Source: Ischnura elegans
Taxonomy: Eukaryota > Arthropoda > Insecta > Odonata > Coenagrionidae
NCBI RefSeq assembly: GCF_921293095.1
Contig: NC_060251.1
Coordinates: forward strand, 64,249,585-64,313,584
Length of the DNA stretch: 64,000 bases
Reading direction: 5' to 3'
Shown here: positions 16,501 through 64,000 of the stretch, in pieces
How positions within the stretch are numbered: the first letter of the stretch is position 1
Layout: each line of letters opens with the position of its first letter
The notes under the pieces: model-generated
Seen by the model: only the letters and a program-made list of their open reading frames with translations
What the model was told of the DNA's origin: nothing
The model's database searches: none
Program-made: the position numbers and the translations under genes

Positions 16501-19500
16501 TATCACCCTCCGACTGAACTGTTTCCACATTACTTTTGCACTTCGAGGAATCCCAGAGAAGCACTGCGATGAGCCACTCTGGGCCAGTAGTAGTGCATAT
16601 TAGCTCAAGCAAACATGACCATGCGGAACCAAAACATGATTAACAAAAAATTTGCAGCACATAAAGAAGTGGAAATGGCAATGCTGGATTCTTAATTTCC
16701 AAAGTAAGCAATTACAAAGACAATGAACTTCAGCAATGAAAAAGAAAATACTTGGGCAAATAAATCATGTATATTCATTAACTCAAACTTCTCTACATGA
16801 CTAACTAACTACATCTACACTTGCCTTCACAGAAATAGTTTGTAAACTTCACTAATGTGTACACAATCAAGAGATGAAAGACATTTTATACCAATACCCT
16901 AACACAGGCAAGGTAACTCACCTAAATACGTGAGTCAAATAAAAAAAATTCAAGGAAAATTAACTTCATGTTTATAGAACTATCCTCATCTTTCTCGGCA
17001 GAAAAATTCCAATTGAAGTTCAAGTACTCAGTGTGCAGATTCACAATTGGAAAATAAAATTATAATTGGCAATGCCATAGATTACGATGCCAAGGAGAAG
17101 TGAAAAATCTACAACTTTACTTTTACATCTAAGATGAGTTTTCTACACTTAAGACATTCCCAATCATTCATTGAATATCCAGGCAAAAGGAAACCTAATC
17201 AATGACTTTTCAGTCAGGTTCTCTTTCTGTATTTGGAAAATGCACACCAAATGATCATATGACTTTTTCTATCATTGGATTAGTTAACTTCTTTTACTAC
17301 AGATAATCAGTTCTCTGCTGTCCATCTATCCTGCTTCAATGGCAATATTGTGGAAAACATAGTCACTTCTACATCTAAAACTATAAATGTCCTCTCCTTC
17401 ACTAAATACTACAAGAGAGCAGGAGGCATCTTCAGAATATCAAGTTTTCATACAGCTTTCAAAATAGTATTTCAATCAGTAAATAATCAATGATATGAGC
17501 GTTAAAAACTAAGAATTACAAGACTCATCAATTTGATCACTTCAATATAATGACAAATATTTAAGCTTAATATAATTTCAAATGTTTAAGTACACAAACA
17601 ACTTTTAAAGTTTAATAACTCTGAATACAAAAATCAACAATGCAGAATAATCATAAAATAAGCCAATCCTGCAGACCAACCTGTAATTCTCTGATAATGA
17701 GATTCCTACTCTTGCCTTGGAGAACAACTTGAGCCTGGGTCACCAGCTCTTCTGGAACGTAAGGAGCAGGCACAATGGGCCGTGAGCTCATGATCACACC
17801 AGCTGAGCCCCGCCCACCTCTAATGGCATTTGTTCTCATGATTCGAGCACGTGTCCTTGTCAACTGCCGCCCTCCAGAACCACCACTGCCACTGCCCCCA
17901 CCTCCTCCTCCCGAGCCCTTGCTGCCACCAGTTCCACCACCACCACTCCCCCCACTGCTGTAAGAAAAAAACAAGGGCCAATGTCAGCATATATCAGCTA
18001 AATTCAGGCCAGAATGTGATATCCATCATTACAAGCAAAGAAAGGTCCATTAAGTCCACAGTTCTACCATTCTTAAGCTTGGGACTAGAATTGGAACTGT
18101 AACCAAAGAAAGATCTAGCATCAAAGTTTGCATTAAACCTAATTTGAAAACTTTTATAGAGCACAATTTACATTACAGTAAGCTCCAGATTATCATGGGT
18201 AATGATGGGGAGAGGCAGCATGAATATTTGGAAAAAAACAGGTGTTTCAAACATCCACTTTTATTTCTTATAATGTTCATAATTTACTTAATTCAAATAA
18301 TATATATATTGTTCGAAAAATCATTCACCTTGACCGGGATTCGAACCTGGATCCCTTGATTTCCGGTTAAGCTACCGAGGCGTCATTCTCCCTTGTCACG
18401 CCTCGGTAGCTGAACTGGCTTAAGCACTCGGTCGGAAATTGAGGGATCCGGGTTCGAATCCCGGTGAAGTCGAATGAATTTTCCTCTATGTTTTTTTCGC
18501 ACAATTTGTGCATTGCGGGTACCTCCGTAAAAGTTATCCCCGTGGCTAGTCCCGGTATACTTAAACAAATATATATTGTTATTAATCCACAGAGACTGTT
18601 ACTTAAGATCACTTCAAGGACTTAATGAAAGCTTTCTTCACCCGACCACAGATCGTTTTAATGGCGATTATGTCATTGTACACACATTCCCACTGCTCCA
18701 TGTACTCTAGCAAAGTGTCTACGCAGGCGTGTGCTTGTGATTCATTTGATCGCTACTCCCATTGTATCTCCTTAGAATTCCACAACTGCATTCACTTCCT
18801 CTACTCCCTTCTCTCAGTTGACCTTGGCTGGTTATGGCATAAACATTCCGGAGAACAATGAAAATCTCCGATTTTTAGGGATGTATTCAACCACATGCAA
18901 GGCCACAGCAATAATTGTGCATTTGTGATAAGAAAATACAATTACAGATCATGGATAATCTTTTCTTAACTTTGGTTTGGTTATCGATTGAAGAAATCTA
19001 CTAAAACTAATCAAGAGTTTTCCCCGCAAGTCAGGAGTTTTTTTCTCTGCAACATTACAGTAGACGTCCCAAAAAACTTGACACATCCAACAAGGTAAAG
19101 AAAATAATTCGGTTTTATGACAGGAATTCCAATGCAATAATAAGCCTTCAATATCCTTGCATTAAAATGAGATAATCCTGGTGTTTTCTCCTCAGATTTT
19201 ATTTTTATAAATATCAGGGTAAACATCACAAGAGGGTTATGCATGGATAATTAGTAACACAGATAATCAGTGCCCAATTAATGAAGAGTTTGCTGTATGC
19301 TTGTGGACTAAATATGGCAATGTTATGGATCCAATAACTTGCAAATCAATTTGATGTATTCTTTCACGTGTTTTTCATAATACAACAACAAATATCATAT
19401 TAGTTTTCGAAAATTATACGAATATGAAACACTAAGCCTGAATCATACGATCATTGGTTTCGTCCCTTTTAGTGCTCACTCAAGCGATTGCTTTACGTGG

Positions 19501-26661: not shown

Positions 26662-29600
26662 ATGGCTCTCTCTCAAAATACTGACATTTCTCCCAGTACG
26701 AGTGATATTGAAAGACTGACGCCTGGTGAAAATGATAGGCATACTATAACCGATCTTTTAGATGTCAACGGTTATCCGCATGATTTAGGGAATGACCCAG
26801 GCTACGATGCAGTCGTTGGGAGATGCACTAGGAGTCAGTCAGAGTCGGCGTTTCAGCAGAGACGATACACAGCGAGAGAGATCCGTAGAATTAGGGAAAG
26901 GCTGCTTCGAACGCAGAAGCGACCAAACCCTCACGATCTGAGAAACTTTTCTCGTCGCCAACGTTTAGCTTTATTTTCGCTTGCCCTGGTGGACTTCGTC
27001 AGCTTCTGCTCCATGTCAGTGATGGCACCATTTTTCCCGAAAGAGGTATGTTGCTTTTAAAAACATAACAAATATCCTACTGCTTCGATTATGCCGAATT
27101 ATCATATACCCTCGTTTGATTTACTCCTTTGCTTAAACTTTTCAGGCAGCAAATAAGGGAATGACTGACACTGTATCCGGCTTCGTCTTCAGTTTTTATG
27201 CTTTGGTCATGTTTTTAACTTCTCCTCTCTTTGGCAAATTGGTAAAACTCGTGATGATTATGTAATAATAGTCATGAGCTACAATTTACTTTCTGAAACG
27301 TGTTTCATTCTCTTATAGATACCTCACGTTGGTGCAAGGTTTCTTTTTATGACGGGAATGTTTGTCGCTGGATTCTGCAATGTTCTCTTTGGGTAGGTAT
27401 AAGCATGGTACATCCGAAATTTCATGGCCCAAGGCCAATTCTTCAACTTATTTAACCCAAGAATATTTTATCTCCCCCCAAAGCATATTCCTAGTTGTGC
27501 CACTGCATTATAAAGTTCCACACTGAGTCAGACAAAGTGCACATCAGATGTGATTTTTCATAGACAATAGTTAAACCTTGGATGATAGCAGGCCAGGAGG
27601 ATTCTTTTGTGCTTCCAAATTCGGATGATGTCATAGATTTAACCAGGTATTGACGTTCTTTGGAGGTCAAATAGGTGTCCGAGTACTGCATCTGAGTAAT
27701 GGCTCACTTCCACGTGAATGGTTAATTTCCATAGTGTCACTATTGTTGCCTAGACCAATGGGTGACTTGTGGGAAGATTCATTTGAAGATCCAACAGCTT
27801 TCTAAATGTGGTCTTTTTCTGAGTAATCTGTATGAAATCGTTTCAGACTTGATGTGGTGGAAATGGGATATATCCACGATAAAATATAAAACAACATTAA
27901 TTTTTCACACTTAAATGTACAGCACCACTGTCGACCATGTGGTTTAGGCACAATGATGTGGAGCTGTATATTAAAGTGTGGAAATTACTATTGGTTTTTT
28001 ATATCCTATCATGGACAACAATCCCTCAGATAGGAGTGCATTATTGGAGGGAAAGTTGATTGGGTTGAGTCATGAGTGGAATGGGTTTTTTACGGCACCA
28101 AGCCAATACAGCTTTCGTGAGAGGTCAGTGAGTGGGATGAGGGTGTAGTAATCACAGGTAATTGGGTGTCTCCGTGAAAGGGAATTTCTCCAGTATTCTA
28201 CCCTTAAAAGTGAGGAAGGAAAGGTGACACCTAGGAAACAGGTAATTGACCGATTTGTGGAGGAGAAACTAGGGAAGTTGGGGAAATGAAAGTGCCAATA
28301 GCTCCTCTTGTCTTACCTACTAATCAGGGGGTCTTCTGCAGGGTCAAGGTGAAATGAGGTAGGCGATTGGTAGCCATGGAGTAGGGGAAATAGGATGGGT
28401 ACTGGAAGAAAGAGGTGACATTGAATAAGAGTTTTGGGGTCTAATTGTCATTACAAACTGGTATTTAGGTGGCGAGCCTCTGTAATGAGGCACACAAAAC
28501 CCAGTAATCCATGTGCCAGTCTACTATTTCAGTCACGATATTAAAGGCTCATGGTGCATGAGAAAATATGGTATCTTTCATCTCCAATTTTTCCAATAAA
28601 TTCAGATTTTAGGTCAGAGGGATTGACCCCATTATATTGTTCAAAAGCTTCCACATACCTCATGATGGACGTGCAATGTAAACTTTTGCTGCCCTATGTA
28701 TGCCAACATACCGGGGCTACTCAGTATCCTGTCTTGTTAGTGTTAAGCTGTGTGGGCATTCATGTAATATGCCATTGCCTATTAAGGGAAAAAAATCTCT
28801 TTACTTAACTTTCCTCATGTATGCTGAACTGTGAGTGCGACTTCTGTATTTTTTAATATTGCTCAACCATCAACTTTAAAACAAAGGTGACCATCAAAAA
28901 TAAAACCCGGGTCTGTTTATAAACTAAAGAGTTGGTTTTAGCCAAGTTATTTTTCATTTTGAATGTGACAAACTTCACATTGAATTGAAGCCCATTACTA
29001 TTATATTTATGAAGTTTTTAATCATGGCTGATGTACTAAAGAAGAAAAAGAAAATAAGGGAATGTCACTATTGTTGCCTAGACCAATGGGTGACTTGTGG
29101 GAAGATTCATTTGAAGATCCAACAGCTTTCTAAATGTGGTCTTTTTCTGAGTAATCTGTATGAAATCGTTTCAGACTTGATGTGGTGGATAAATATCTTT
29201 CTGAAAAGTAAACATAATTTCTGCTTTAAATTCTCAGTCGCTTATTTCATCTATTTCCAGACTCCTTGGTTATATTGATGACAATTTGATATTCACTGTC
29301 TACTGCCTTGTGGTCCGAGGTACTGAAGCTCTAGGTGCTGCAGCTTATTCAACTGCAAGCTACACTTTTGTGGCAGATATATTTCCTGACAACATGGGAT
29401 CTGTGATGGTGAGAATTTTTTGTTGTATTCCTCTGTATTTGTGTAATTGTTTACTCCAAAGATGTTGCTGATGTACATGCTTGCATGTAGTTAACTAGTT
29501 GCTTTCATTACCTTTTATAGTTTCCTGAAATATCCAAATGACATTTTGTCTGCCTGAGGGGATAATGTCTCATCTGTTTCGTTTGACTAATGGTTTGTCC

Positions 29601-32600
29601 TCTGCTGTTAATCCTCAGCCATTATCAATTAGTATTGGCGACTGTTATTGGTTGATATCCAGTCGTGATTGACATAATTTTTTATCCGCTGTCAGATATG
29701 TATATAATGCTAAAAGAATTGGAGACTCCCAATTGCAAAATTTTTCATGCATAAAATCCTGTGCTCACTTTTTCGTTTCCCCATTTTCGGAAAATCACTT
29801 GACTTCCATTATTATTATCAAGGCGTGATACTGCCTGAATCAAACAGTAACACGTCTTGAGAATGGAAGACAAGTCATTTTCCGAAACGTCAGCCTATAC
29901 AACTGAAGGAACCTGGTGTAGAGCCTGAGAGGAATTCCCGAGTATCAGTGGTGTAACTACCCCCCAAAGCCTCAGAGAAATAAAAAAAATATTTAAAGAT
30001 ATTGTCTAGTTTTAAATTATAATAACTGCATCTGCTTTAAGTTAAATTTTACTTGGCAAAATGTTGGAAAATGTATTTAGGAAATGTCATTTTTTTTTAT
30101 TTTCCCGGTCCCCCCCATTGCCTGGGGGGGAGGGGTTGCCACCTCAGGCCATCCGATCCCCCCTCCAAGCATATTCCTATTTACGCCACTGCCGAGTATT
30201 ATTCACCCTGGAAAAATGGAAATTGTTAACTCTCTTCTGTTCGTTGATGCTATATGTTATGTAGTGCTTTATTATCCGTAAACATGAGTTCCTTAATCTG
30301 ATTTTGTTTCCATTTTCAGGGAATACTCGAAACTTTTGTTGGCCTTGGTATGAGTGTTGGCCCTGCATTGGGTGGTCTTCTATATTCGGTAAGTTTTATG
30401 CTCCAATTTATGGAATTGATTTCTTGGTTATTATAATTTAGAGAGTTTAAATATTTTGTGTAGAGATTATGGTTTGAATTAGAATAACTGGTGGAGAAAG
30501 GGAAGTAAAGAGGATGTGGAAAAAGTGAATGGGGATTGTAAATTTGATTGTAACGTAAATTACAGTAGAAGCTCATTATAATGAGTGCTCTAAATGCTTT
30601 AAAAATATCTTGATATTCAGGGTGCTTGTTATATCATGAGGTGAAGGATGAAGCCCCTTAATTGTGGCCCTAGGAACAAGCACTTAAATTCACATATAGT
30701 TTTGGTGACCAGGTTGCTCTAGCCCAGTCAGTGCTGCTCAATTTTATCTTAATTCATCAAGATTGTGAATTACGTCGAAATTCAGGCACTGAAATGCCTT
30801 CTGAAATCTATTTATGAAAGTTATTTTTTTCCCATGATGGTATCTTGGTTCCTTTTAGTGTTATTAATGACATTAGCTGAGTTCACTTAGGATCAGAACA
30901 GATGAAAGACAGACAATACATTATGACAGCAAAGAGTGGAGGTGCAAGTAAAGTGCAGACTGATATTGGCTAGATGCTCCTCCAGTGGTCTGTCTTTCAA
31001 GCATTGTGTCCCTTGTGAATGTAGCGTAAAGCTGAGGAACCTCTGCCCTTTATCCTCAACACTGCTCTCTGCTGTAATGTGCTTGGCTAGATGCTTGTCT
31101 TTCACCCATTCTGCTTCTGCCTAAGTTAAGCTCAAAGAAGAACTACAAAAAAGTGCTACTGCAGGCAGTGTATTCAACGGGAGGTTGTTAATCATCAATA
31201 TTTGTGTAACATTGTAGACCTGTAAGTTGGCTGCCTCATTAATGTCTAGTCATCTAGGCTATAATACGTCTAGGCATAGTTTTCTCTCCTGAAATGGATC
31301 TTCATTATCCACAACATTGATTTATTTAGTATGAATTCGTGATTGTCAAATAAGAATTTTGCTCTAAGGATTAAAAAGTGGAAAACAGTTGATATCCTAG
31401 TGATGAGTTCATTTTGTGACCATCACGTTCTGCATTTGAATTCTATGAAGTAGTCGTGCTTGGTACCAGCAGTGAGGCTTGGACAAAGTGTCAACACCAC
31501 AGTGATGCTTGGATTATTCATAATTCAGATGTTGCGCTAATCTTGCATTATTTCTTAGAGTGGAATAACAGTAGTAATAGAGAAGAAACATTTCAAGGCG
31601 AGCTCTAACCCCCTGCTCAGGCACATTGCCAATGAGCCAACCCACCTTGACCCTGCTTCCAGGTGGTGCCTAGGAGTCTGACTTGCACCCACAGGAGTTC
31701 ATTGCTTAAGTCTGTGCTGACTAAAATGTTCTAGACACCATAATGACTGCCACGACTGGTCATTTAGCCATTCAGTTGAGCTGTGCTTAGAAATTTAATC
31801 AGTATGGTTACATTTGTTGTAAACTTGATGCTTTGATGTACAGTGGTCTGATAATATAATCATACTCCTATGTTTTGTGTAATTATTTATGCTATTAGTG
31901 GTATAGAGGATGATGTTGATTACCTACAAATAAATTAGCTGATTCATGATGAAATAAAAACACAGTACTATTCCACAACCTTATATTTTTGACTGCAAAA
32001 ATATAAGGTTGTGGAATAGTACTGTGTTTTTATTTCATCATGAATATCACATCGTTCCACCAAGTAACGCCTAAATCTGTTGATTTTAAATTAGCTGATA
32101 ATTTTGATTACTTTCAAGTAAATTAGATTCCGTTGCTCCGAAGAGATATATTTTGTATACCCTCACAGGGACTTAAAGGCTTTGCTAATATATAAATTTT
32201 TTATGTTTTAATTAGAGATGGGTCGAATAGCAGATTTCTCGAATTCGAATATCGAATTCGAATATTAAATCATTGCTCGAATATTCGAATACCTCGAATC
32301 TCGAATACCTCGAATACTAAATGATGAATGCTGGAATGTTTGACTCGGTTGCCTATGCAGCAGGTAACACAAGATTTTGGGGAGTAATTTTGATTTCCTT
32401 TAAATGATTCAAACAGGAATTTAGCTGATTAATGAATATTTTAATTTTATGGAAACAATTTGGCATATAATTAATTCAACTAACATCGCTTTACCCCCAC
32501 TCCTGCTGCCAAGTGCTAGCTGACAATCTGAGGCATTTTGCAAAATACAAGCTCTTTTCCACCGGATTTTCTTCAATTATTTTCAGTCCATCTTTGGGAA

Positions 32601-35600
32601 TTCTCACGAGATAAGAAGATGAATTGGAATTGCTATCAGGGAGAAACCAAATATTCTGAGAAAATATCCCTTTGTCTGGGACTGTAACAATAAAGATTTA
32701 TAGCACTATTCATAAATTGAAACTTGATATATGTTTTCGGAAAAAAATACCGCATCAACTTCTGAGAAGCTCTGCTGCTCATATCGAGTTTCGCCAGAAT
32801 GCTAAGTCTCCGTCGTATTTTGACATTTATTTCTTTGCGTAAAATGCTTAAATAAACTCAGAAATACGTCGTGTTTGGTCTTATTCGTTTTGAAATTACG
32901 CGCACGTTACTAATATTTCAATTCAATAAAGGTGTGACATCAATTGACGAAAGTCATTCTTAGACACCTTTTGTGCTAATAGATGACTCATGCAGCGGTT
33001 GACCTCCACAGAAATGGGGAACTTCGAAGCTGGTAGGAAAAAAAAGGCCAGTGGGGGAGAAAAGGGAGGGCCCGAAACACGTTTCTATTGTTCTCGTGTA
33101 ACTTGGTATTTTTTCGAAGCTAAGGTCTTCGTAATATGATCCCTGCGCGAGCTGTGACCTTTTTTTTATTTCGAAGAAGAGGAAAGCCTCAGAGGGGGGA
33201 GAGAGTGCTGAATGGAGAGGGATACCGCATCTTGGGAAATGCGCTAATGTAAGTATCCCACGGTACTCACGCAGCAGTTGACCTCCAGAAATGGGGAACT
33301 TCGAAGCAGGTAGCCAGAGAAAGGTCAGTGGGTGAGAAAAGGGGGGAGGGCGTGAAGCACGTTTTTATTGTTCTCGTAACTCGATATTTTTTTCGAAGCG
33401 AGGGTCTTCGTAATGCGATCCCTGCGCGAGCTGGGACCTTTTGTTTGATTTCGGAGAAGAGGAAAGCGTCAGAGGGGGTGAGGCGAGTGCTGAATGGAGG
33501 GGGATAGCGGATCGTGGGAAATGCCTAAGGTTGCTATCCCACGGTACGGAGGTTCTCCTGGTGGGGGGAATTGGGGATTTTCGGATTTTTTCACCCGACC
33601 ATTTTCGGTTCCCCTCGACGAACTCTTTTCACCGCTAAAATCCACCAATTTGATGTAATTCGACAACGTGAGTATCACGGCGCTGCGAGCACTAAATGAC
33701 TACAGTTCTCTACATTTTTCCGAGTCAACTACCAACGACGTGTGTGCGACAGTGTATGACGCGAAATTCAAAGTATTCGAGGTATTCGAGGCGGTACTTT
33801 TCGCATAACTATTCGAAACCTCGAATATCGAATACTTTCTAGTATTCGAGGTATTCGAGTATTCGCGGATACTATTCGCACATCTCTAGTTTTAATCATA
33901 AGCCTTTTGATGATACATTGCCAATCTTTCGTTATAACATGATTCTTGCTATATGCCACTCTCACTATAATGAGCTTCTACTGTTCATGGATTCTGGTAG
34001 ACTGAGATTTTTTTGGCGAGTTTTTTGGTTTTTAATTGACTTGGGTCTTTATTATATTTTATATTTATATATGTATCTTCCTATCGTCATTCTTCATCAC
34101 CATTAATAAATACTATATTGCCGTGTTAGTCATCATGCTTATCATTAATGGTACAATGATCATATTTGATGCCTAAGCTTTAACTGCCATAAGCTTGACA
34201 GTGGTAAATGCTGCTTAAACTTATAATCCTCTAATATTAGCTGATACATACAGTGGAACCTCGTTAAAGCGAGTACGGGCTATAGCGACACCCCCGCTAT
34301 TACGAGAAATAGCCGATGCACCGTCAATTGACCCTATAATAAGCGTGTTAAAAAATTCGTTTTTACGAGACCCTTTCGGTGTTGGCTCTCGCCATAGCGA
34401 GGGTTTCACCGCCGGAAGACTTTCATCAAGACTCCTTAACCTCTGTAATTGCTAGCGATCTGTTAAAAATGAAGTTAATGGAGTGCTCAGTCTCAAATTT
34501 ATGTGGTAAACTGTCGTTCGATAAATATAATGATTGACGAAACAATGCTTTGCATGATTTTTTATTAAGTGCTGTGCTTATAAATTCTTTGAATAGTTAG
34601 TCGTTATTTGAGTAAGAAAATTTAGTGATGCAAAAAACATCGCCTTTTGCCTGGATTTATGCTTACGTTTATCGGATAGATGTTTATCTGTCGCCGCACC
34701 ACTCCTGTTCCTGTATATCTGTTCGCAACAGGTATATTGGCTATTATTTGCTCCATCTCCGGTATAGCGACAATTCGCTATAGCGAGTGTTTATTAGTGC
34801 ACCGTAGGGTGTCGTTATATCGAGGTTGCACTGTACATAGTTAGCCCTTTCACTCCATATGATGTGGTATGTATTTTTTCTTATGAGTTACCTATTTCTC
34901 TAGATGCGTGATGTGCATTTCTTGCAATTGTTTATCATGTTCTTCAACCCATCATGCTCATGAATAATATTTCATTGGAGTGGAAGGGATAATATGAATT
35001 ATTGGAATTTTATTTTGCAATGAGATTTTAAATTGGTGATTGGGATTATTTTTTACTTCAATATCATCAAGGTAAAAGGAGTATCCTACTTAATTCTAGT
35101 TCATTGCTTGTATTTGATTCTAATCCTGGCTTGGGTTATCAAATTGAAGGTTTTTATCTACAGTGGATTTGGTTATTTTTTCCATAAACTATTCAGGGTA
35201 AATAACCATTTACTCATCTTGCTTATCATTTTGTAATTTTGGATGGGAAAGTTTGAAACCTAACCGCTTGAAGTGATGGTGAATTTTGATAGTGAATTTG
35301 TTCAAAATGCTTTTTGATTCCTCGGAGTGTCTGGATAGAGGATAAGCTAACCTTAAAAATGCTTGAGGTTTTGTTATTTTGTAAGGGGGGTTCCACTGTG
35401 CAGTAATAGAAATTTCATGAAGTCTGTTTTCTAATTTCAGAAAGTTTACAACACTTGAGTGCTGATTGAGCTTAAAATAATCAATCAATGAAAATAAGAA
35501 TCTGATTTATTAAATTATTTTTTCTCTATCATCCTGAATTTCAATGAATACACTTATGTATATCATCTACACCTCAAGTTTCCATTGTCGTTCTTAAAAA

Positions 35601-38600
35601 AATGTTATCATTGTTGGAAGCATCTCCCCAAATCTAAGTAATAATTCGATACCTCCTTCACAATTGCTCAACAATCACCCATCGAATCAAATCCATTCAT
35701 CCAGTGGCCCAACAATACAAATGTGCTCAGCTGGCTGTAGCCAGAGCACAAACACTCACCTTCAAAGCTTGGAGAATTGTAGGTAAGCGTTATGCTCTGG
35801 ATACTGCCAGCTGAGTGCATTCGTATTGTTGGGCTACTAGATGAACGGATTTGATTTGATGGGCGATTGTTGAGCATTTGTACAGTGGAGGTGTCAAAAG
35901 GCCGCTATACACGGTGAATGATCATGCGAATGATCATGCTGAATGATCACGTGATCATTCACAGGATCTTGAGAGCAAAATAGAGCATGTTCTAATTTTC
36001 ACTGAATGATCATGCGCATGAAGGTTCATTCACGAATTGTTCCGTTATACACGGTGAATGATAATGCGCATGATCATGCTGAATGATCATGCGAATGAAA
36101 TCATTCGCCGTGTATAGCGGCCTAAATACATTTCGTGCAACCTCAATTCGTGAATGTCTCTCCATGGAACATTAAATAACTCTCTTAAGTACAATTCATA
36201 TTGTCACGAATTTATATAATCCCCAGAATCTTTTGGTGAAGGTTATTTTTTAAATGAACACAATTCTATTTTAAAGCATATTTAGGTCCATTGGGTAGTC
36301 AAAAACACATTGAAGTTTGTGCATAATTGTCTTTGATCTAAAATGTGGCTTAGTTCAAAAGATTTCTCCAGCAGTTATGTACATGTTACTCTTATATGGG
36401 AATATGGATTCAGAATAATGATGGTCTGATACAGGCTTTTAAGTTAACTCCCTTTTTGGGATCATCACTTTGTAAAATGTAAATTTTAATGAAAAATTGA
36501 TGTCAGAATTGTTTTGAAATGTATTCAAGTGTTGTTTTGTTGTTCTATGGTTGGCAGTAGAGATGAGGGTAGAACCCTCATTCTAGATGTAGCCATTCGA
36601 ATGTGAATTTCACACTTTCTGAGTGGGGGGTTCTACCTTGGGGTATCCATGATGAAAACAATGATTCTAAATACCCAATAAAAGGCATCACAATTTTTTT
36701 GTGATGCCTTAGAGTATTTGGATGTAATTGGACACTATTTTATCAATTTTGCTTTGCAAATGGAGTGACTAAGGGCCAGTTTTATAATCTATGGTTAATG
36801 TTAACCATAAGATGATACAGTCTTTCACTTTTCGTGTAGGTGGTTAAAAATTCTGGTTGGCTAAGTTCAGACATCAAGCTAACCAGAACAGTCGGCCACC
36901 ACCAGGTTAAGTGGAAGGTTGTTTCATCTTATGGATAGTGCTTACGAGGATAATAAAATTGGCTCTAAACGTATTCCTTATTATAATAGATGTACAAATT
37001 CATGGTGGAGCCATCTTTTTGGACATATATTCTACCTTTTATGTACCAGTTTTTGTGGTTTTCGTGGGAATACTTATATGAAGTTTAGGAGTACGTACAT
37101 ATTTACCCAGCAATTTTTTGCAATGCTTGCTTTAAAATTAGCTAATATAATTTTCTTTTTATGAAAATGGCTCCGTATTTTAGCTAGGGGGATTTGGTCT
37201 CCCATTCTATGTGCTTGGAGTGCTCATGATGATCATTGTTCCTGTGAACTTCTTTCTTTTACCTCGTGGTGATGGTGAGTGATTCCTCCCCCAGCTCATT
37301 GTCCTTGTGCCATTTTTGTTGCCATGGTTGATATTTTTTAGGTCTGAGTACCTACATTTATATGCTTTGGTCTTGCAAAATTTCATCATAGACAAGGATT
37401 TTTTTTGGCATTCTGTTTTCATTGTGATATGTGCTGCTGTCAATTCTTGATTATCTATGCCAGCGGTTCCCAAACTGGGGGTCGCGGGCCGTTCGGAAAG
37501 GGATCGCGAGATGTGCGAATAATAAAGTGAACTATGTACTTAAACTTAGAGAACCATTTTTAGGGGGTCGCGGCTAAAACGTATGGGCTAAAATGGGTCG
37601 CAGAAAGAAAAAGTTTGGGAACCGCTGATCTATGCTAATGATTGTAAGGCTGTGACCTGAGCAATCAAAGAACACTGTAAACAAGAAAATAAAGAATATA
37701 GCAGAAAATTTTCTCGGGTTTTCCACTGGTTGATGTCGTCCATGTCTCCCGACGTTTCGATCCGCGACTTCCGAATGCATTCGGAATCGCATTCGGAAGA
37801 TCCCCTGAGGATGATCAGCAAGCTGCGGATCGAAACGTCGGGAGACATGGATGACATCAACCGGTGGAAAACCCGAGAAACTTTTCTGCAACTGATACGC
37901 CGGGAAAACCTAAGATCATAAATAAAGAATATGGTTGGAATAAGGACATTTTACATAATTTTTTTTGGAGAATATTCAGGATATTTTCTTATTCATATCA
38001 ATCTTTTTTGCCAGCAATTAAGATATATGTATCAAACTTTTGTAGATTTTCATAATTATTGCTTTCAGAATATTCTTTGAGATTTTATGTGCAGGGAGGA
38101 AAAAAGGGCTTGGGTAATCTGTAAACTGGATAATTGAGGGTTGACTGCATTTCTGGTTTAAACTGAATGCCATGAATGTCTAATGTGTGTTTAATTTTCA
38201 GTCTCAAATTTGTGTTAGGATACCTTGTAATGCATTCGTTGCAAAAGAGACTTTGTTATTGAAATATGATTTGATGCTTTCCCAGCGAATTATGTGGTTA
38301 AACTGTTCTCAGGATTCCCACCGGGTTAATTCTTTCATAACGGAAATGAAATAAATCTACATTCGGCCCTGATGATGAGCACCAAGATGGAGCTAGAAAC
38401 GTTGGCCGTTTTTAAAGAATCAACCTGGTGGGAATCCCAAGAACAGTTTACCTAGACTTTGTTATCGTTGTTATGTGCTTTTTTTCCTCGTCACAGTTTT
38501 TGCTGATTATCTTGCACCAATGTGAAGTTAACACCTCAGTGATTGGTTTGCTAAATGTCTGTGATGCTTTCTGAGTACTGTATAAGTTGAAGTTAATTGT

Positions 38601-41600: not shown

Positions 41601-44600
41601 TCGGGTGATTGGAGGGGAAGGGGAGAGGTAAGTGACGGAAGGGTGAAGGTGAGAAGGGATAGGGGAAAAACCAGAGGGAGTTACATATAACTACATATCT
41701 AGTATCTATAACTATCTATCTAGATTAATAACTACCTCTGGTTTTTCCCCTATCCCTTCCCACCTTCACCCTTCCCGTCACTTTCCTCTCCCCTCTCCCC
41801 TTCCCCTCCAATCACCCGACCACAGAGTATATATACCGGCAAATTCTTATGTGTATCACTAGTCTTGAAAATGGTACAGTGTAACCGAAACTAGTCGGTA
41901 ATAAAGTGTGTGTTTTTGTAGAAAAGCTAAGTAATTTCCTTCCAACCATAAAATGGAATTCTACAAAGTAAAGGCCTCAACAATTCAGTGCATCAACTTC
42001 TTAGCTTATGTTCACTGTGTGTGCTAACTTCCTACTCGTCCCAGAACAAGGCTTGGAGAGTGGTGCCACGAGGTGGCAAGTCAAAACACTACGCAAAGGA
42101 ATTTTCAAATGTTCTGGATTTCTGGTTTTCCGGATTTGAGGTCCTCAACTGTATTTCAAATGAGCCAGGCCACTGGTGAAAATTTTCTTTTTTATGGAAT
42201 TTAGGGTGTAGATTCTGTTCAAAGTCACCTATTTTGGGCATCTTTTTATCTTATTCAATTGGTCATGTAATTTATTTTCATTAGATTTTATATAAAAAAC
42301 TCAAATTTTAGGCGTGGACATGGAGGGTCGCAGTGGATCAATCATTGAGATGATGAGAGTTCCATCAGTGATTGTTACCAGTTTTGTGATAGTAGTTGCC
42401 TCAAGCACATGGGGATTTCTGGATCCAACATTAGAACCACATCTTCGTCAGGTTAGAAGCAACACAATTAATTGCATGAATGTGTAATCCCTAATTTATT
42501 TGCTCTTCAACTTGCATTTTTGATTTATACGTTATATTGATATCATATGGTCAGTTTTCAAGTATAAATTGTTAAATTTTTGATAGTGGTCACATTTTTT
42601 GCTTTTGGTAATCATAATTGTTTTGCAGAAGTAATTTTACTTGCTCATTATCTATTCCTCCCATCAGTTATAATATTTCAGTACATACTTAATCATTAGT
42701 GTCCCTTATGCCAAATAAGATAACGTAGTTACAAGCAAAATTGTAAAACTTCTACTTCATGATGGGAGGAAATAATGAGTCTCTCTTAAAGGTGGACAAT
42801 AATTTTCTTTGACCATTTGAGAAAACAATAAGGGAGGTCATGTAATGGTGAACAGTGGCAGTCGGTTTTACGAGTCGTCACTCCGTATTTTTCTTTGGGA
42901 GTACTTATCCAGGACAATTGTGTTTATGATTCACATACATAGGTGTTAATTTGATGTGTGAGTTAGAAGTGAACATTTCACACTTTAAATCGTTATTTGT
43001 CACATTTAGTTTCAGTTGTCCGCAGAGGAAGTGGGGCTCATCTTCTTGCTGTTTTCTGCCGTTTATGCCGTATCAAGTCCTATTTGGGGTTGGCTTGCTG
43101 ATCGCCTCAGCAGTCACTGGTCCATGATGGCATGGGGCCTTATAGCATCCACCATTGGTTTGCTTCTGCTTGGACCATCACCCATCATTCCTTTTCTAAA
43201 AAGGTGAGACTTTGCATATGAACCATTCTTATGTCAGCTTATTTTTATGTTTGAAAATGGTGGAAAATGAAAGAAAATTGTAAAATGTATAAAGGAGTTA
43301 TTCCTCCAGAGGTATTATTATTTAAAGCATGTACTTGAAACTTCTCACCCTTTTCAATGAAATGGCTGAGGATAAGGGAATAGAAGCGGTAGAGAGAAAG
43401 AAATACATGTAACTGTTTCTGTAACCGTTTCTTTTGTGCATATTCACGTGGATTTCGTTAAAACATACTTTTCATCCAGCAAGCTCTATACAATCAAAAG
43501 AAAAAATAGGTAATTTTATTTTTTGAACTCTGGTCATATTGGCAATATAAAAATTATTTAATTTTTTTTGTCATTTCTAGTTCTCTTTGGCTTAACCTGG
43601 TGGCTCTGTCAATTTTGGGGGTTGCTGTTGCCCTGACTCTTCTGCCAACATTTCAAGGAGTTTTGGACAATGCCATGTAAGTTTCTTGGAGTGCTGCAAA
43701 TTATTAATGGTGGCTAAAGATACGCCTGCTGGCCAAGACAAACTGCTCACCTCGGAACACCTTTAAATCCACCTCTACCTTCCAGCATATTTTTTTCTCC
43801 TATCTCAATACGCCAAGATCCACCATTCCCTCCAAACCTTCACACTCACCACTTGAGCCACTTAGATACTCAGCACTCCCATCTCCTCCCAACGTCTCCA
43901 TGTCCATATACAGTATGTGCATACAGGGTGCATGTCTACACATACAAAGTGTTTCAGGAGGAATCTCCAATACTTCAGGAGGTGTTAGGGGAGACAATTT
44001 TAAACATTTTTTTCATCCATAAACATGGGGTTGCAACTCCTTAGTTACTCAGCTGTAGCAATGCAAACATTTTTTGGATGCACTTTGCAGTTGCTATGAA
44101 AACAGTTTTTCTTGGGTATCTAGTAGAGATGGGTCAAATGGCAGATTACTCGAACTCTGATATTGAATACGAATATTAAATCATAGCTCAAATATTCGAA
44201 TATCTTGAATACTAGAATTGCACAAAGCATTTTAAATGCTATTCTTATATTTCACTTAACGAATGTAAAATAAAAAGGCGTATAAGGTAAAAAAGTAATT
44301 TTCGGTTGCACTTTTCCTAAGGTTATTCCTTAATGTTTTTGTTGGGTGATACTGTTTAGACGGACTTTTTATCTCCAAAGCAAATTGATTTTTATCATCT
44401 CAACATTATTTGAATCTTGAAATACACTGCTTTTGAATCGTGGATCAAGAATAATGGCAAAATTCTTCTTTTTCCAGAAATTAATGCCTCCTTTTAATGG
44501 AAAACAGCAAATCATTGACAAAATCTTGTTGATGACCATGCAAAAACTTCTTAGTTTTTAGGAAATTGATAATGCTACTCACAAGGGGGATAACTTAAGA

Positions 44601-55155: not shown

Positions 55156-57543
55156 TTACGAATGAGATGAACGAGCAATGTGGAGGAAAAAGGATACCTT
55201 GTCATTAGTTTCTTGACCACACATATTGCACTTAAAGGGGTCTTGGTAACCATGGTAACCCATGTGCATCGTGTAAAGCACTACATCACGGAATGCAATG
55301 TCGCAGTAAGGGCAGTGATAATCTTCCTTATCCTCCTTCACCCTGACCACCTTTGTCACCTTTGGCTCCTCGGATGCTGCCATTGTCCTCCTCCTTTTAG
55401 AGGGCGAGTCAACCATGGATTCTTCTTCATCGTTTTCCGAGTGACGAGATTGCCTTTCCTCCTCATCATCCCCAGAACTCCCTCCCTCCTCCATTTCCTC
55501 GCCCCGCTGCAAGTTCCGCGAGATCCTCTCCAGTTTGAAGGCCCTGCCCTTTCGTCTGCTGCTGCCACTGCCCAGCAAGGCCACCCCACCCTTCTGCCTC
55601 TCCTCACCGAGATGGTGCTCCACCGCAGACTGCTGTCTCGGAGTGGACTCTTTGGTCAAGTCCAGCGGCACCCCACCATTTGGGAGTCTTCGCCCCTCTC
55701 TACCGTCATCTCCACCTGAGGGCAATATCGCAGCAGTGTCCCTCATCCCCTCTGCCACAACTTCGTCCTCCCTGCTCACCGCAGTGGGTGCTGGTGGTGA
55801 TGCTGTGGGCTTTACAAGTGGGGTTTGAACTGCCTCCTGGCTCAACCATGGCCTCTGGATGGGTTGGGGTGAAGCTGGGTGATGGACCTGACCCTGGTGG
55901 AGGGTGGCACCACCGTTTGTCACTGCCTGCTGCTGGTAGTGTTGTTGATGATGCATTTGCTGCTGTACATGGGCATGCCATTGCGCCTGGAGCTGCGGGG
56001 GCACGGGACCCCTGAAATGCCCCATCCGGGGGACCACCGCCGTCAGCATGCGGGCCAGGTACTCTTTCAGCCCGGCATCAGTGGCCTGAGCTGGGACAAT
56101 CCCGTTGGCTATCAGGATGGATTGCTGTTGGTGCTGTGGTGGGGGCTGTTGGTGGTGCTGCTGGGCGTGGAGAGGGTTCATGGCCCTCGTAGCACCGACC
56201 TCGGTGCTCGAATCCCTGTTTCCCACATCCCCGTTCGCTGCGTGCACCATCATATGCTCTGCGAAGGCCTCCCGACTGGTCGAGGCGAACTCGCACAAGG
56301 TGCACTTGACTGGTCTGTTGCTGGAGGCGCAAGGGGGCCCGCCGGAAGGCTTTTTGGCCTGCACATCCGGGTGCTCTTCCCTGGCAGGGTGCCACTGCTC
56401 CTCGGCCTCTGCCCTCGGCTGCAGGACCCTGGGCAGGATGGGCCTCGATGTCTGCGGGGTGCTGTAAGCGGACGACGTTATCGTGGAGGCAGGGGCGTAG
56501 TAGCTGCCCGCGCCGTTCGCGTAGGAAGGCGAAGGGGAGGACGGGTAGACCAGCATCGCTTGGAACGGAGCCCCGGAGGACGCTGTTGTGGTGATGACGG
56601 AGGCCGCAGCGGTGACGGCTGGAGGCAGCGTTGTTGTCGGGGCCGGAGGGGACGGGGGACTGTTTGGAGCCCCCGAGACCACCACGGTCTCCTGCACCCC
56701 TTGCTGTTGGTGCACCTTCTTCGATCCCGTCTTGGGGCCGCGCCGGGTGCCGTACACGTCGATCACGGGCAGCGGGTTGGGGGAACCATCCGGGTGCAGC
56801 ACCATCGCCGGCTGGTGGGAGTACTTGCGGAGGTGCAGCTTGAGGCTGTGGCAATACTTGGTGGCGTATCCGCAGTCGGCGCAGCGGTACTGATACACGC
56901 TGGAGTGGCTCTTGAGGTGGGAGTTGAGCATGGACTTGTTGACGCAGGTGTAGGGGCAGTGGGGGCACTTGAAGGGCTTGGAGCCGAAGTGGTTCCTCAG
57001 GTGGTACTCTAGGTGGTGCTTGTATTCGGTGACGAACGGGCACCGGGGGCAGGTCAGCAGCCTCTCGGCTCGGATGTGCATTCGAGAGTGCTCCCAGAAC
57101 TCCAGTTTGGTCAGCGCCACGAAGTCGCACTGCTTGCAGCGGAAGGTCTTGAACTTGCCTTGCGACGTGATCCGTGGCTTGTTCACGTCTCCGCCCGCGT
57201 CGTCCTCGTCGGAGGCGTCGGGGCGCTGGCCTTGGCCGTCACCCTCGGAATACTGCGGCCCGCCGGCGGCGGACTCGGAGTATTGCATGCGGCGGATGTC
57301 GGCCGAGTCCTCGCACTCCTCGGAGTAGCAGCCTTCCGAGTAGGGGGAGCGGGGGCCGTCGTCGCCTTGCCCGCCGCGGTCTCCGCCGCCGCGGCTGCTG
57401 CCTCCGGGGCTGTCCTCCAGGTTGGCGGCGTCCTCTGACTCCCGCTCGGGGGCGCCACCGCTGCCGCTTCCGGGAGATATTCCCGAGTCGTCCCTCGGGT
57501 CGTCATCGCGCTCGGGAGCCTCTTGCTTCACTCGCACGGAACC
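55156..57543 (-). CDS. hb: hunchback, main coding exon (zinc-finger exon)
   Basis: Hunchback is a C2H2 zinc-finger gap-gene transcription factor controlling anteroposterior patterning and neuroblast timing. This terminal exon encodes residues 141-935. A TTCCCAG acceptor precedes GGTTCC at 57543 and joins in phase 0 to the upstream exon. The order is: an acidic Ser/Gly-rich stretch; four contiguous fingers at about residues 276-383 ([70 protein letters not shown]); the A-box-like [16 protein letters not shown]; a fifth isolated finger at about 554-574 ([13 protein letters not shown]); Gln/His-rich stretches; VPLDLTKES (D-box or CtBP-like PLDLT); [13 protein letters not shown] (C-box); and the two C-terminal fingers at 881-935 ([27 protein letters not shown], ending ARSSHS). 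Drosophila Hb has 4+2 fingers, so the central finger is extra. GC content is far higher than in the surroundings. Confidence 0.98.
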
Positions 57544-57929
57544 CTGGGAAGGAAAAACGGGAGGGGTTAGAACTCGGTTCAAAGTTGATTCCCTTCAAAC
57601 ATGAATCCGCGTGGAAAAGTAATAATGATCGTGGAAAAGTAATAAATACTCTGCGGCACTTCTACGGCTAGAAAGTTTAGTGAGGTGGAGGACGCCTTGG
57701 TCCTTGGAAAGGGTAATTAAGAAGCGATGTTGACACAACCTCCGACAAGAGCATACATCGAAGACTAGAGATAACAGTGGAAAATTTCGATGGGTAGAAA
57801 AAACGGTGATGTTAAGGGAAATTATCATTCGAGAGGAAAATTAATTTGCGTTAATCAAATCCTGTAAGCAAAAATATATTCAGCCAAATCGTTTGAAAAA
57901 ACTGTTCGAAAAAGAATGGTTGTGTACTT

Positions 57930-62990: not shown

Positions 62991-64000
62991 TGGACACTCC
63001 CTTTAACACACATGAAATAAATAAGGTGGCACCTGGCGTTACCTTGCGGATTCTATAGCTGAAAACAAGAGCGCAATAACCGATTCATAACCAAAGATAG
63101 AAAAATCTTAATTGTTCAGGAAAAAATCTATAAGAACAAAATAACATTATTCAGTTTGCAGGCATATTAATTACAAAGTAGATGATTACAAAAATATAAG
63201 CTTTTCATTTTTTGAAATGTCTATGCATACATTTTTCCCATTCTTAACACAAAAATGCATGTACCTGAGTAAACAAGGGCAATTTGCGTTATACACCAAG
63301 CCTGATTTGATACAACACAAGAAACTTTTGCATTCTTAACTTAACAAATGACAAAATGGTACGGAAAAAGAGGAACGATTATGACCAGAACACAAATTGG
63401 AAAAAATAAAAGGAATAAAGGTGAAATTTCGAGAAAAATATAAAAAACAATGGTTCTTGCACGGAGACAGTAGAACGTAAGGTTTCAACAATGTCTGATG
63501 AACTTATTTGGTACTTATTGTTGGAAAAAAACAATGTCTTCTGGTAATGCGGAAATCTCATTCTTGCAAAAATTGGTCAAAATATGGTATTCAAATATCG
63601 AATATTGGGCATTGGCTCTTGCACCAAGGACCTCAATTCATGCTGAACTAACAAGAATAAACTTCCACAGGATGATTTATTGTGACAAAAACTAGGGTTT
63701 CGTCGAACGGTTGACATCTTCAGGTGAGCACTTTACAGAACATGATTTGCTCATCTGACGATTTTGACTGTTCAGCGAAACTATGCTCCTGTATTAACTC
63801 ATCCAGGAGAAGTTTACTAAGTTTTTTCTTGGCGATTGAACACATTCAGGCTTAATGTTTCCGGTTTAACTTTACGGAATCACAATACAAATATTAAAAT
63901 AAAATTCACTTTGTACATTCCACACGGACCAAATATCATTCCCATTCAATAAAAATCATTACCAACCATGATTTCGACTTTTATGTCATTTCATATACCT
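62991..64000. other. hunchback upstream/intronic sequence, nothing specific recognised
   Basis: AT-rich sequence without a credible coding region. It probably belongs to the first hb intron or 5' flank. No transposon termini with target duplications were seen. Confidence 0.5.

What the first reader, a model, noticed from the sequence alone, without database searches (positions are those of the whole stretch)
29786..41950. Cluster of five palindromic insertions sharing a hammerhead-ribozyme-like box order
At 29,786, 37,701, 38,297, 40,987 and 41,470, unrelated-looking palindromes all carry a YTGANNA-type box, a short stem-loop, then GAAAC and mostly GTC/GTT. Three have the exact CTGANGA box, and for these the bases flanking the boxes can pair as stem I (CGGCC/GGCCG at 38,297; GCC/GGC at 40,987; CCC/GGG at 37,701). 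At 40,987 stem II is a perfect AATGGC/GCCATT. Hammerhead motifs are known in Penelope-like retroelements and small retrozymes (Cervera and De la Pena). The 1-3 extra bases beside stem II are non-canonical. Five copies in one gene's introns suggest an active small-RNA-borne family.
Basis: partly seen in the sequence, partly recalled or inferred. Interest (0 to 1): 0.72.

Follow-up and report, generated by a model that had tools for sequence, protein, structure and literature searches.

The report
Truncated Penelope retroelements carrying hammerhead motifs
The five palindromes are tiny leftover copies of Penelope-type jumping genes, each carrying the hammerhead-ribozyme-like RNA motif found at the start of the element's protein, and most still show where copying of the element began.

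Summary
A covariance model of the motif, built from 46 copies elsewhere in the same 1.72-Gb genome, finds all five palindromes; its eight best window hits lie inside them (E 2e-15 to 0.066). Stems I and II covary beyond controls. Stem II usually forms only if one pyrimidine after the CUGANGA box is left unpaired, which explains most 'extra bases'. In two copies with 836- and 853-aa open frames the first Met codon lies inside the motif and the frame runs on to the reverse-transcriptase segment. RT and GIY-YIG frames precede the motif in relatives, so these are Penelope-like elements (PLEs). Three of five inserts have 12-13 bp target-site duplications; their short ends lie 76-79 nt and long ends 106-127 nt into the ORF, resembling the PLE 'tail' and reported internal RT start sites. 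The palindromes are thus ultra-short head-to-head PLE insertions of several families, not shown to be an active small-RNA-borne element. Rfam hammerhead models miss them. Minimal PLE hammerheads and inverted pLTR copies are already known, so novelty is modest. Cleavage was not tested.

The parts
37700..37919 (+). E2: 220-bp head-to-head PLE insertion; TSD AAATAAAGAATAT at 37687-37699 and 37920-37932; short end near ORF +79, tailed end at ORF +109
   Evidence: one search gives the short end as +80
37797..37847 (+). E2 hammerhead-like motif (C3-G8 core), ATG at 37811 inside the core; frame open for 36 codons
   Evidence: CM hit E 2.1e-15; translation
37743..37790 (-). E2 left arm, partial motif without the CTGANGA box
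   Evidence: CM hit E 0.00069
38297..38470 (+). E3: 174-bp head-to-head PLE insertion; weak 7-bp TSD TTATGTG (38290-38296 / 38471-38477); ends near ORF +78 and +96 if that TSD is real
   Evidence: a match of this length occurs in 15% of the null
38361..38411 (+). E3 hammerhead-like motif, ATG at 38375
   Evidence: CM hit E 1.1e-11
40989..41274 (+). E4: 286-bp head-to-head PLE insertion; TSD AAGTTTCAATAT (40977-40988 / 41275-41286); ends at ORF +79 and +106
41150..41202 (+). E4 right-arm hammerhead-like motif; perfect AATGGC/GCCATT stem II; ATG at 41169
   Evidence: CM hit E 6.2e-6
41034..41081 (-). E4 left-arm copy of the motif
   Evidence: CM hit E 0.0072
41474..41997 (+). E5: 524-bp, nearly perfect palindromic insertion; TSD TTCTTAGCTTATG (41461-41473 / 41998-42010); ends at +76 and +127 from the ATG triplet (no long frame from it)
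   Evidence: outer 160-nt arms 99% complementary
41857..41904 (+). E5 right-arm motif, U3/A8 core, GAAAC-TA-GTC in place of GAAACGTC
   Evidence: CM hit E 0.066, not significant alone
41516..41563 (-). E5 left-arm motif
   Evidence: CM hit E 0.0037
29785..29887 (+). E1: decayed head-to-head PLE fragment; no TSD found
   Evidence: arms; no TSD
29849..29899 (+). E1 hammerhead-like motif, U3/A8 core, ATG at 29863, peptide MEDKSFSETSAYTTEGTW
   Evidence: CM hit E 1.1e-12

Best explanation
The five palindromes are extremely 5'-truncated insertions of several Penelope-like retroelement families. Each consists of two inverted copies, head to head with ORF starts pointing outward, of the element's pLTR/ORF-start junction. 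That junction carries a minimal type I hammerhead-like motif whose core contains the ORF's start codon. The likely mechanism is as follows. The PLE protein nicks both strands of an AT-rich target and starts cDNA synthesis inside the transposon RNA at one of two sites, about 78 nt and about 110 nt into the ORF. The two cDNAs run back towards and mostly past the ribozyme and stop early. They are joined in the middle, leaving a palindrome with one tail-less and one tailed end and a 9-14 bp target-site duplication. Shown: the motif structure by covariation, the link to RT/GIY-YIG ORFs, the start codon position in two copies, the end positions and the TSDs. Inferred: priming from both strands, early cDNA stop and joining (I put this step at about 0.55). 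Untested: self-cleavage. The confidence given is for the identity (truncated head-to-head PLE insertions with this motif), not for the priming step.
For: A model of 46 non-window copies finds all five. Covariation score 0.552 against 0.233 shuffled, and at most 0.167 when slid. Pfam on seven frames chosen by eye from 82 loci: RVT_1 and GIY-YIG in L002 and L019, GIY-YIG in L059 and, just under its cut-off, L005. The first Met of two long open frames is the ATG in the motif, and the frame runs to the RT segment (phase worked out by hand). TSDs of 12-13 bp for E2, E4, E5. 13 of 41 arm-bearing occurrences, E2 among them, have TSDs of at least 9 bp against 0.9% in the null; short end +69 to +85, long end +98 to +128. 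11 of 12 close neighbours among the first 100 places are head-to-head, about 0.9 close pairs being expected by chance. Published PLE anatomy agrees: inverted shorter pLTR, 31-bp tail, TSD (PMC3846280, passages); RT starting 111-118 nt into the ORF, both strands cleaved and extended, start codon in the hammerhead (PMC11167929, main text).
Against: E1 has no TSD and E3 only 7 bp. E5's motif scores weakly, has no shared reading frame, and its family was not traced to an RT ORF (searches unanswered). 52 of 93 motif occurrences showed no inverted arm in the upstream sequence at hand (up to 700 bp, only about 400 bp in most of the short loci), and 28 of the 41 that did gave no TSD of at least 9 bp (palindromes with a motif in both arms are counted once from each arm). 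Of the seven frames given to Pfam, L006's had no match and L008's RVT_1 frame reads like another kind of retroelement. Priming of both strands was reported for a lizard PLE in vitro, not for this genome. Rfam hammerhead families do not match at E up to 10. The copies behind the covariation test were fetched by patterns that fix most core letters, so core invariance in them is no evidence.
Confidence: 0.88

Rival explanations
1. Same PLE origin, but the palindrome arises by self-priming: the cDNA or antisense RNA folds back and is copied, giving the inverted arm, as proposed for Adineta PLEs.
For: Head-to-head inverted pLTR structures with palindromic junctions are read as self-priming in PMC3846280 (passages).
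Against: In all 13 TSD-resolved cases one end stops at about +69 to +85 and the other at +98 to +128, which two separate RT starts explain directly; the purified lizard PLE protein extends both target strands (PMC11167929).
Confidence: 0.35
2. Retrozymes: small non-autonomous elements moving as ribozyme-cleaved circular RNAs.
For: Hammerhead motif and small size; PLEs and retrozymes co-occur in genomes (PMC7761336, PMC7229834, passages). About half of the sampled clusters lack an open frame from the ATG (29 of 61 are stop-free over 26 codons), so non-autonomous families exist among them.
Against: No tandem array among the five; the reading frame is kept in many relatives (24 of 36 in the 21-nt group against 7 and 11 in the other frames); end points resemble PLE start sites; Rfam hammerheads fail.
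Confidence: 0.05
3. Foldback/MITE DNA transposons that happen to contain the boxes.
For: Terminal inverted arms and TSDs.
Against: The two ends are unequal (tail on one side only), TSD length varies from 9 to 14 bp, arms hold the PLE ORF start, and PLE ORF fragments lie inside longer versions (L088/L059 by Pfam, L086 by eye).
Confidence: 0.03
4. Chance box order in unrelated palindromes.
For: The loose box pattern is common in the window (25 places).
Against: The model built from other loci finds all five; strict pattern 3 observed against 0.01 expected.
Confidence: 0.01

Closest known systems
PAc (Poseidon of Anolis carolinensis), PMC11167929 (main text read)
   Same: Hammerhead at the pLTR/ORF junction with the start codon in it (cut 26 nt into the ORF; 29 nt by the same count here for the 21-nt group); insertions end near +111 to +118; optional 30-40 bp tail
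   Different: Another genome (insect by my reading), many families; ATG-to-GAAAC spacing 21 nt or other lengths; many copies with U3-G8 or U3-A8 cores; copies cut down to palindromes of about 170-720 bp
Pen2a_Av and relatives of Adineta vaga, PMC3846280 (passages)
   Same: Direct pLTR plus shorter inverted pLTR, 31-bp tail on one side, 9-bp TSD, head-to-head orientation, pLTR includes the ORF start
   Different: Here most or all of the ORF is missing between the two arms
Minimal PLE hammerheads (Cervera and De la Pena 2014; Lunse, Weinberg and Breaker 2017; papers not held, seen only as citations)
   Same: Type I order, almost no stem III (GAAACGUY), association with PLEs, thousands of genomic copies (as reviews report)
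   Different: One unpaired pyrimidine between A9 and stem II is the commonest arrangement here; whether those papers describe it could not be checked

Membership tests
Penelope-like element | ORF with RT and GIY-YIG endonuclease | tested here: met
   In genomic relatives, not in the window inserts: L002 RVT_1 and GIY-YIG, L019 RVT_1 and GIY-YIG in two frames, L059 GIY-YIG; L005 GIY-YIG 21.9 bits, under its 22.6 cut-off; L006 no match
Penelope-like element | pLTR spanning the ORF start, inverted shorter copy, optional tail | tested here: met
Penelope-like element | Target-site duplication | tested here: met
   E2, E4, E5 (12-13 bp); E3 inconclusive; E1 none
Hammerhead ribozyme, type I minimal | Core CUGANGA...GAAA with stems I and II | tested here: met
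   E2, E3, E4 exact core; E1, E5 U3/A8; covariation of stems in relatives
Hammerhead ribozyme, type I minimal | A9 directly followed by stem II (canonical spacing) | tested here: not met
   One skipped base in 50 of 76 distinct copies, none skipped in 1, other registers in 9, no stem of 3 or more in 16; canonical register 40.0% paired in helix II against 79.6%
Hammerhead ribozyme, type I minimal | Match to Rfam hammerhead families | tested here: not met
   Window at gathering score, 29500-42100 at E up to 10, 20 loci at E up to 10
Hammerhead ribozyme, type I minimal | Self-cleavage after H17 | not testable with these tools
   Needs in vitro transcription
Retrozyme | Tandem monomers with canonical hammerheads | tested here: not met
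   No such tandem array in the window; not surveyed in the genome
Retrozyme | Circular RNA intermediate | not testable with these tools
   No RNA data

The most novel reading that the evidence does not exclude
This genome's PLEs carry a hammerhead subclass with one regularly unpaired pyrimidine between A9 and stem II and the start codon inside or beside the core, and apparently intact tandem families carry U3-G8 cores that should cleave poorly. The motif would then be kept mainly as a start-codon/RT-initiation RNA structure bound by the PLE protein, with cleavage secondary or protein-dependent, and ultra-short palindromes would be a direct genomic record of two-ended reverse-transcription starts.
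Probability: 0.25. Interest if true: 0.6.

Novelty: new member of a known kind. Interest (0 to 1): 0.42.

Why it matters
The role of the hammerhead in Penelope-like elements is described as unknown in a 2020 review (PMC7761336, passage), and PLE insertion is poorly understood. A genome with about 20,000 places of the motif, many of them in short palindromes with both ends preserved, lets one map reverse-transcription start sites, test two-strand priming against self-priming, and ask which ribozyme positions are kept. It also shows that the Rfam hammerhead models overlook this abundant form.

Tried and rejected
Rejected: chance; Rfam microRNA, snoRNA and other hits below their gathering scores, which come mostly from the long hairpins; MITE origin; retrozyme tandem array. 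The PDB search with a short peptide gave one chance-level hit (E 1.1). Pfam found nothing in the first 36 codons of E2, nor in the N-terminal parts of L091 and L092, which stop before most of the RT domain. Single-strand folding is unremarkable for all six sequences tried, five from the window and one relative: z-scores -0.81 to -1.78. The lookup of 'Penelope' in the taxonomy was pointless. A sixth copy at 63.7 kb was not supported. Core pair 3/8 does not behave as a clean compensatory pair: whole-genome counts (reversed controls) are C-G 8693 (22), U-G 1719 (37), C-A 513 (36), U-A 979 (176). The odds ratio after subtracting controls is about 8.7 (by hand), but copies are related and U-G copies are numerous. 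The 100% pairing for this pair follows from the patterns used to fetch the loci; the same patterns forced T after A9 in nearly all loci, so only speaks on that base, and it saw only the first 100 places, all on the first 11 Mb of one contig.

Unanswered (not completed): searches for the E5 and E2 families by DNA, for the stem III variant GAAACNNGTY, and by family PF01541.
Full report
What is there. The five palindromes were confirmed by position and arms: 29785-29887 (E1), 37701-37889 (E2), 38299-38450 (E3), 40985-41248 (E4), 41469-41951 (E5). The strict pattern CTGANGA N5-25 GAAACGTY occurs 3 times in the window against a shuffled mean of 0.01 (maximum 1 in 200 shuffles).

Insertion ends. Exact target-site duplications flank E2 (13 bp), E4 (12 bp) and E5 (13 bp); matches that long arise in at most 0.2% of 5000 random placements. 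E3 has 7 bp (15% of random placements reach this) and E1 none. Counting from the A of the ATG in the motif, the short (left) ends lie at about +79, +78, +79 and +76 in E2-E5 and the long (right) ends at +109, +96, +106 and +127 (worked out from the coordinates; one search gives +80 and +109 for E2; E3's values depend on its weak TSD).

Genome-wide copies. The window lies in a 1.72-Gb genome. CTGANGATGN{4,25}GAAACGTY has 8693 places against 22 for the reversed pattern. The form that leaves the base after A9 open, CTGANGAN{6,30}GAAACGTY, has 21,547 against 852. From 82 fetched loci and the window, 93 different occurrences were tested; those too near a locus end were dropped. 41 have an inverted arm upstream, 52 do not (in the short loci only about 400 bp upstream could be searched). 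13 of the 41 have a TSD of at least 9 bp (null 0.9%, n = 2877); these inserts are 210-715 bp long with one end at +69 to +85 and the other at +98 to +128. A palindrome with a motif in both arms is counted once from each arm. Among the first 100 places, 12 neighbour pairs lie within 1 kb (0.9 expected): 11 are head-to-head, and the twelfth is tail-to-tail between different families.

RNA structure. In 46 copies without any window sequence, 83.6% of the cells of stems I, II and the 3/8 pair form standard pairs (shuffled 65.0, sd 1.4); stem I alone 84.8%, stem II alone 79.6%, and the 3/8 pair 100% by the way the loci were fetched. The covariation score is 0.552 (shuffled 0.233; slid versions at most 0.167). 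Stem II is 79.6% paired when one base after A9 is skipped and 40.0% in the canonical register. In another count on loci L001-L082 and the window (106 occurrences in 65 clusters, 61 of them with TG after A9), pairs 2-4 of stem II are Watson-Crick in 48, 45 and 47 of 61, against shuffled maxima of 34, 28 and 27; the third pair of stem I is 47 of 61 against a maximum of 38; the first pair of stem I does not exceed its shuffles (49 against a mean of 47.4). In the first 100 places of the search that left the base after A9 open (76 distinct), the best register skips exactly one base in 50 of 76 (T 27, C 23) and none in 1; 9 have other registers and 16 have no stem of 3 or more. The covariance model from the 46 copies recovers E2 (2.1e-15), E1 (1.1e-12), E3 (1.1e-11), E4 (6.2e-6 and 0.0072), the left arm of E2 (0.00069) and E5 (0.0037 and 0.066); the next hit is at 0.71.

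Link to Penelope-like elements. Seven frames were chosen by eye from 82 loci for Pfam. Upstream of the motif on the same strand are RVT_1 and GIY-YIG in L002 and, in two frames, L019; GIY-YIG in L005 (21.9 bits, just under the 22.6-bit cut-off); and GIY-YIG between two head-to-head motifs in L059. L006's frame had no match, and L008's RVT_1 frame reads like another kind of retroelement and is not counted. An RT piece of L019 finds 150 scored matches of 3940 candidates; by my count of the list 28 lie in frames of 802-872 aa (one with a stop inside the match), some in tandem with a pitch of 2527 or 2556 bp. In L091 and L092 (frames of 836 and 853 aa) the first Met of the long open frame is the ATG in the hammerhead motif, and the frame reaches the RT match in phase (the phase worked out by hand). 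In the group with 21 nt between ATG and GAAAC, frame 0 is stop-free over 26 codons in 24 of 36 copies, against 7 and 11 in the other frames, many sharing a peptide like M-x6-E-T-S/L-A ... LTRWE-x-RE-x-F; the other spacings often lack an open frame. Longer copies (L088; L086 by eye) show the same head-to-head design with part of the ORF between the arms, so the palindromes look like the short extreme of a series.

Comparison with print. PMC3846280 (passages) describes Penelope copies with an inverted shorter pLTR, a 31-bp tail on one side, TSDs, and the first ORF codons in the pLTR. PMC11167929 (main text) reports that a lizard PLE protein cuts and extends both target strands, that reverse transcription starts 111-118 nt into the ORF, that the tail is the stretch between two RT start sites, that the start codon lies in the hammerhead, that its hammerhead cleaved only with protein added, and that ribozyme mutants still insert in vitro. 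Reviews and one research paper (PMC6155905, PMC7761336, PMC7229834, passages) call PLE hammerheads minimal forms, mostly lacking helix III. [quoted passage not shown] The two primary papers on PLE hammerheads are not held. Library searches used.

Mechanism. Shown: motif, structure, ORF link, end positions, TSDs. Inferred: both target strands prime cDNA from two different start sites on the same RNA region, and the cDNAs meet after short synthesis. The one-sided tail in every TSD-resolved case (13 of 13, plus E4 and E5) fits two start sites; self-priming remains the main rival. Some tandem families with open frames of 835-844 aa (for example C1:158995094-159000206, matched by coordinates) carry U3-G8. 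C3 is recalled, not tested here, to be important for cleavage, so fast cleavage may not be required in these families.

Verdict. The objects are truncated PLE copies of several families, which is a known kind; the most useful new element is the mapped ends of ultra-short palindromes together with the regularly unpaired pyrimidine.

Noticed in passing
63697-63781: Decayed head-to-head pair with CTGAAGATGTC..GACGAAAC and CTGACGATTTTGA..CAGCGAAAC, perhaps a sixth, older PLE palindrome; no TSD and no covariance-model hit.
   Followed up: partly
39575-40532: Element with 35-bp terminal inverted repeats (94% complementary), mariner-like by reading of the ends; a transposase-like frame on the minus strand was not recognised by Pfam.
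   Followed up: no
37461-37631: Short element with ends CCAGCGGTTCCCAAACTGGGGGTCGCGG ... GGGAACCGCTG, hAT-MITE-like by reading.
   Followed up: no
41294-42153: E5 sits inside an older element bounded by 27-bp inverted repeats TACAGTTGAGGACCTCAAATCCAGAAA.
   Followed up: no
31942-32045: Perfect 50-bp inverted repeat with a 4-nt loop, possibly a very young foldback insertion.
   Followed up: no
18315-18483: Two tRNA-like stretches in inverted orientation, one scored as tRNA by Rfam (18400-18472).
   Followed up: no
55156-57594: Minus-strand 812-codon open frame with C2H2 zinc fingers, hunchback-like by reading, which suggests an insect genome.
   Followed up: partly
G000:C1:158995094-159000206: Tandem PLE array with U3-G8 hammerhead cores and 844-aa open frames at 2556-bp pitch: apparently intact copies with a non-standard core.
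   Followed up: partly
L002, L003, L005, L028 and relatives, motif near locus position 1501: Families whose ATG-to-GAAAC spacing is not 21 nt and whose frame from the ATG is closed at once, although two of them (L002, L005) sit behind PLE ORFs: the start codon of these families must lie elsewhere.
   Followed up: no
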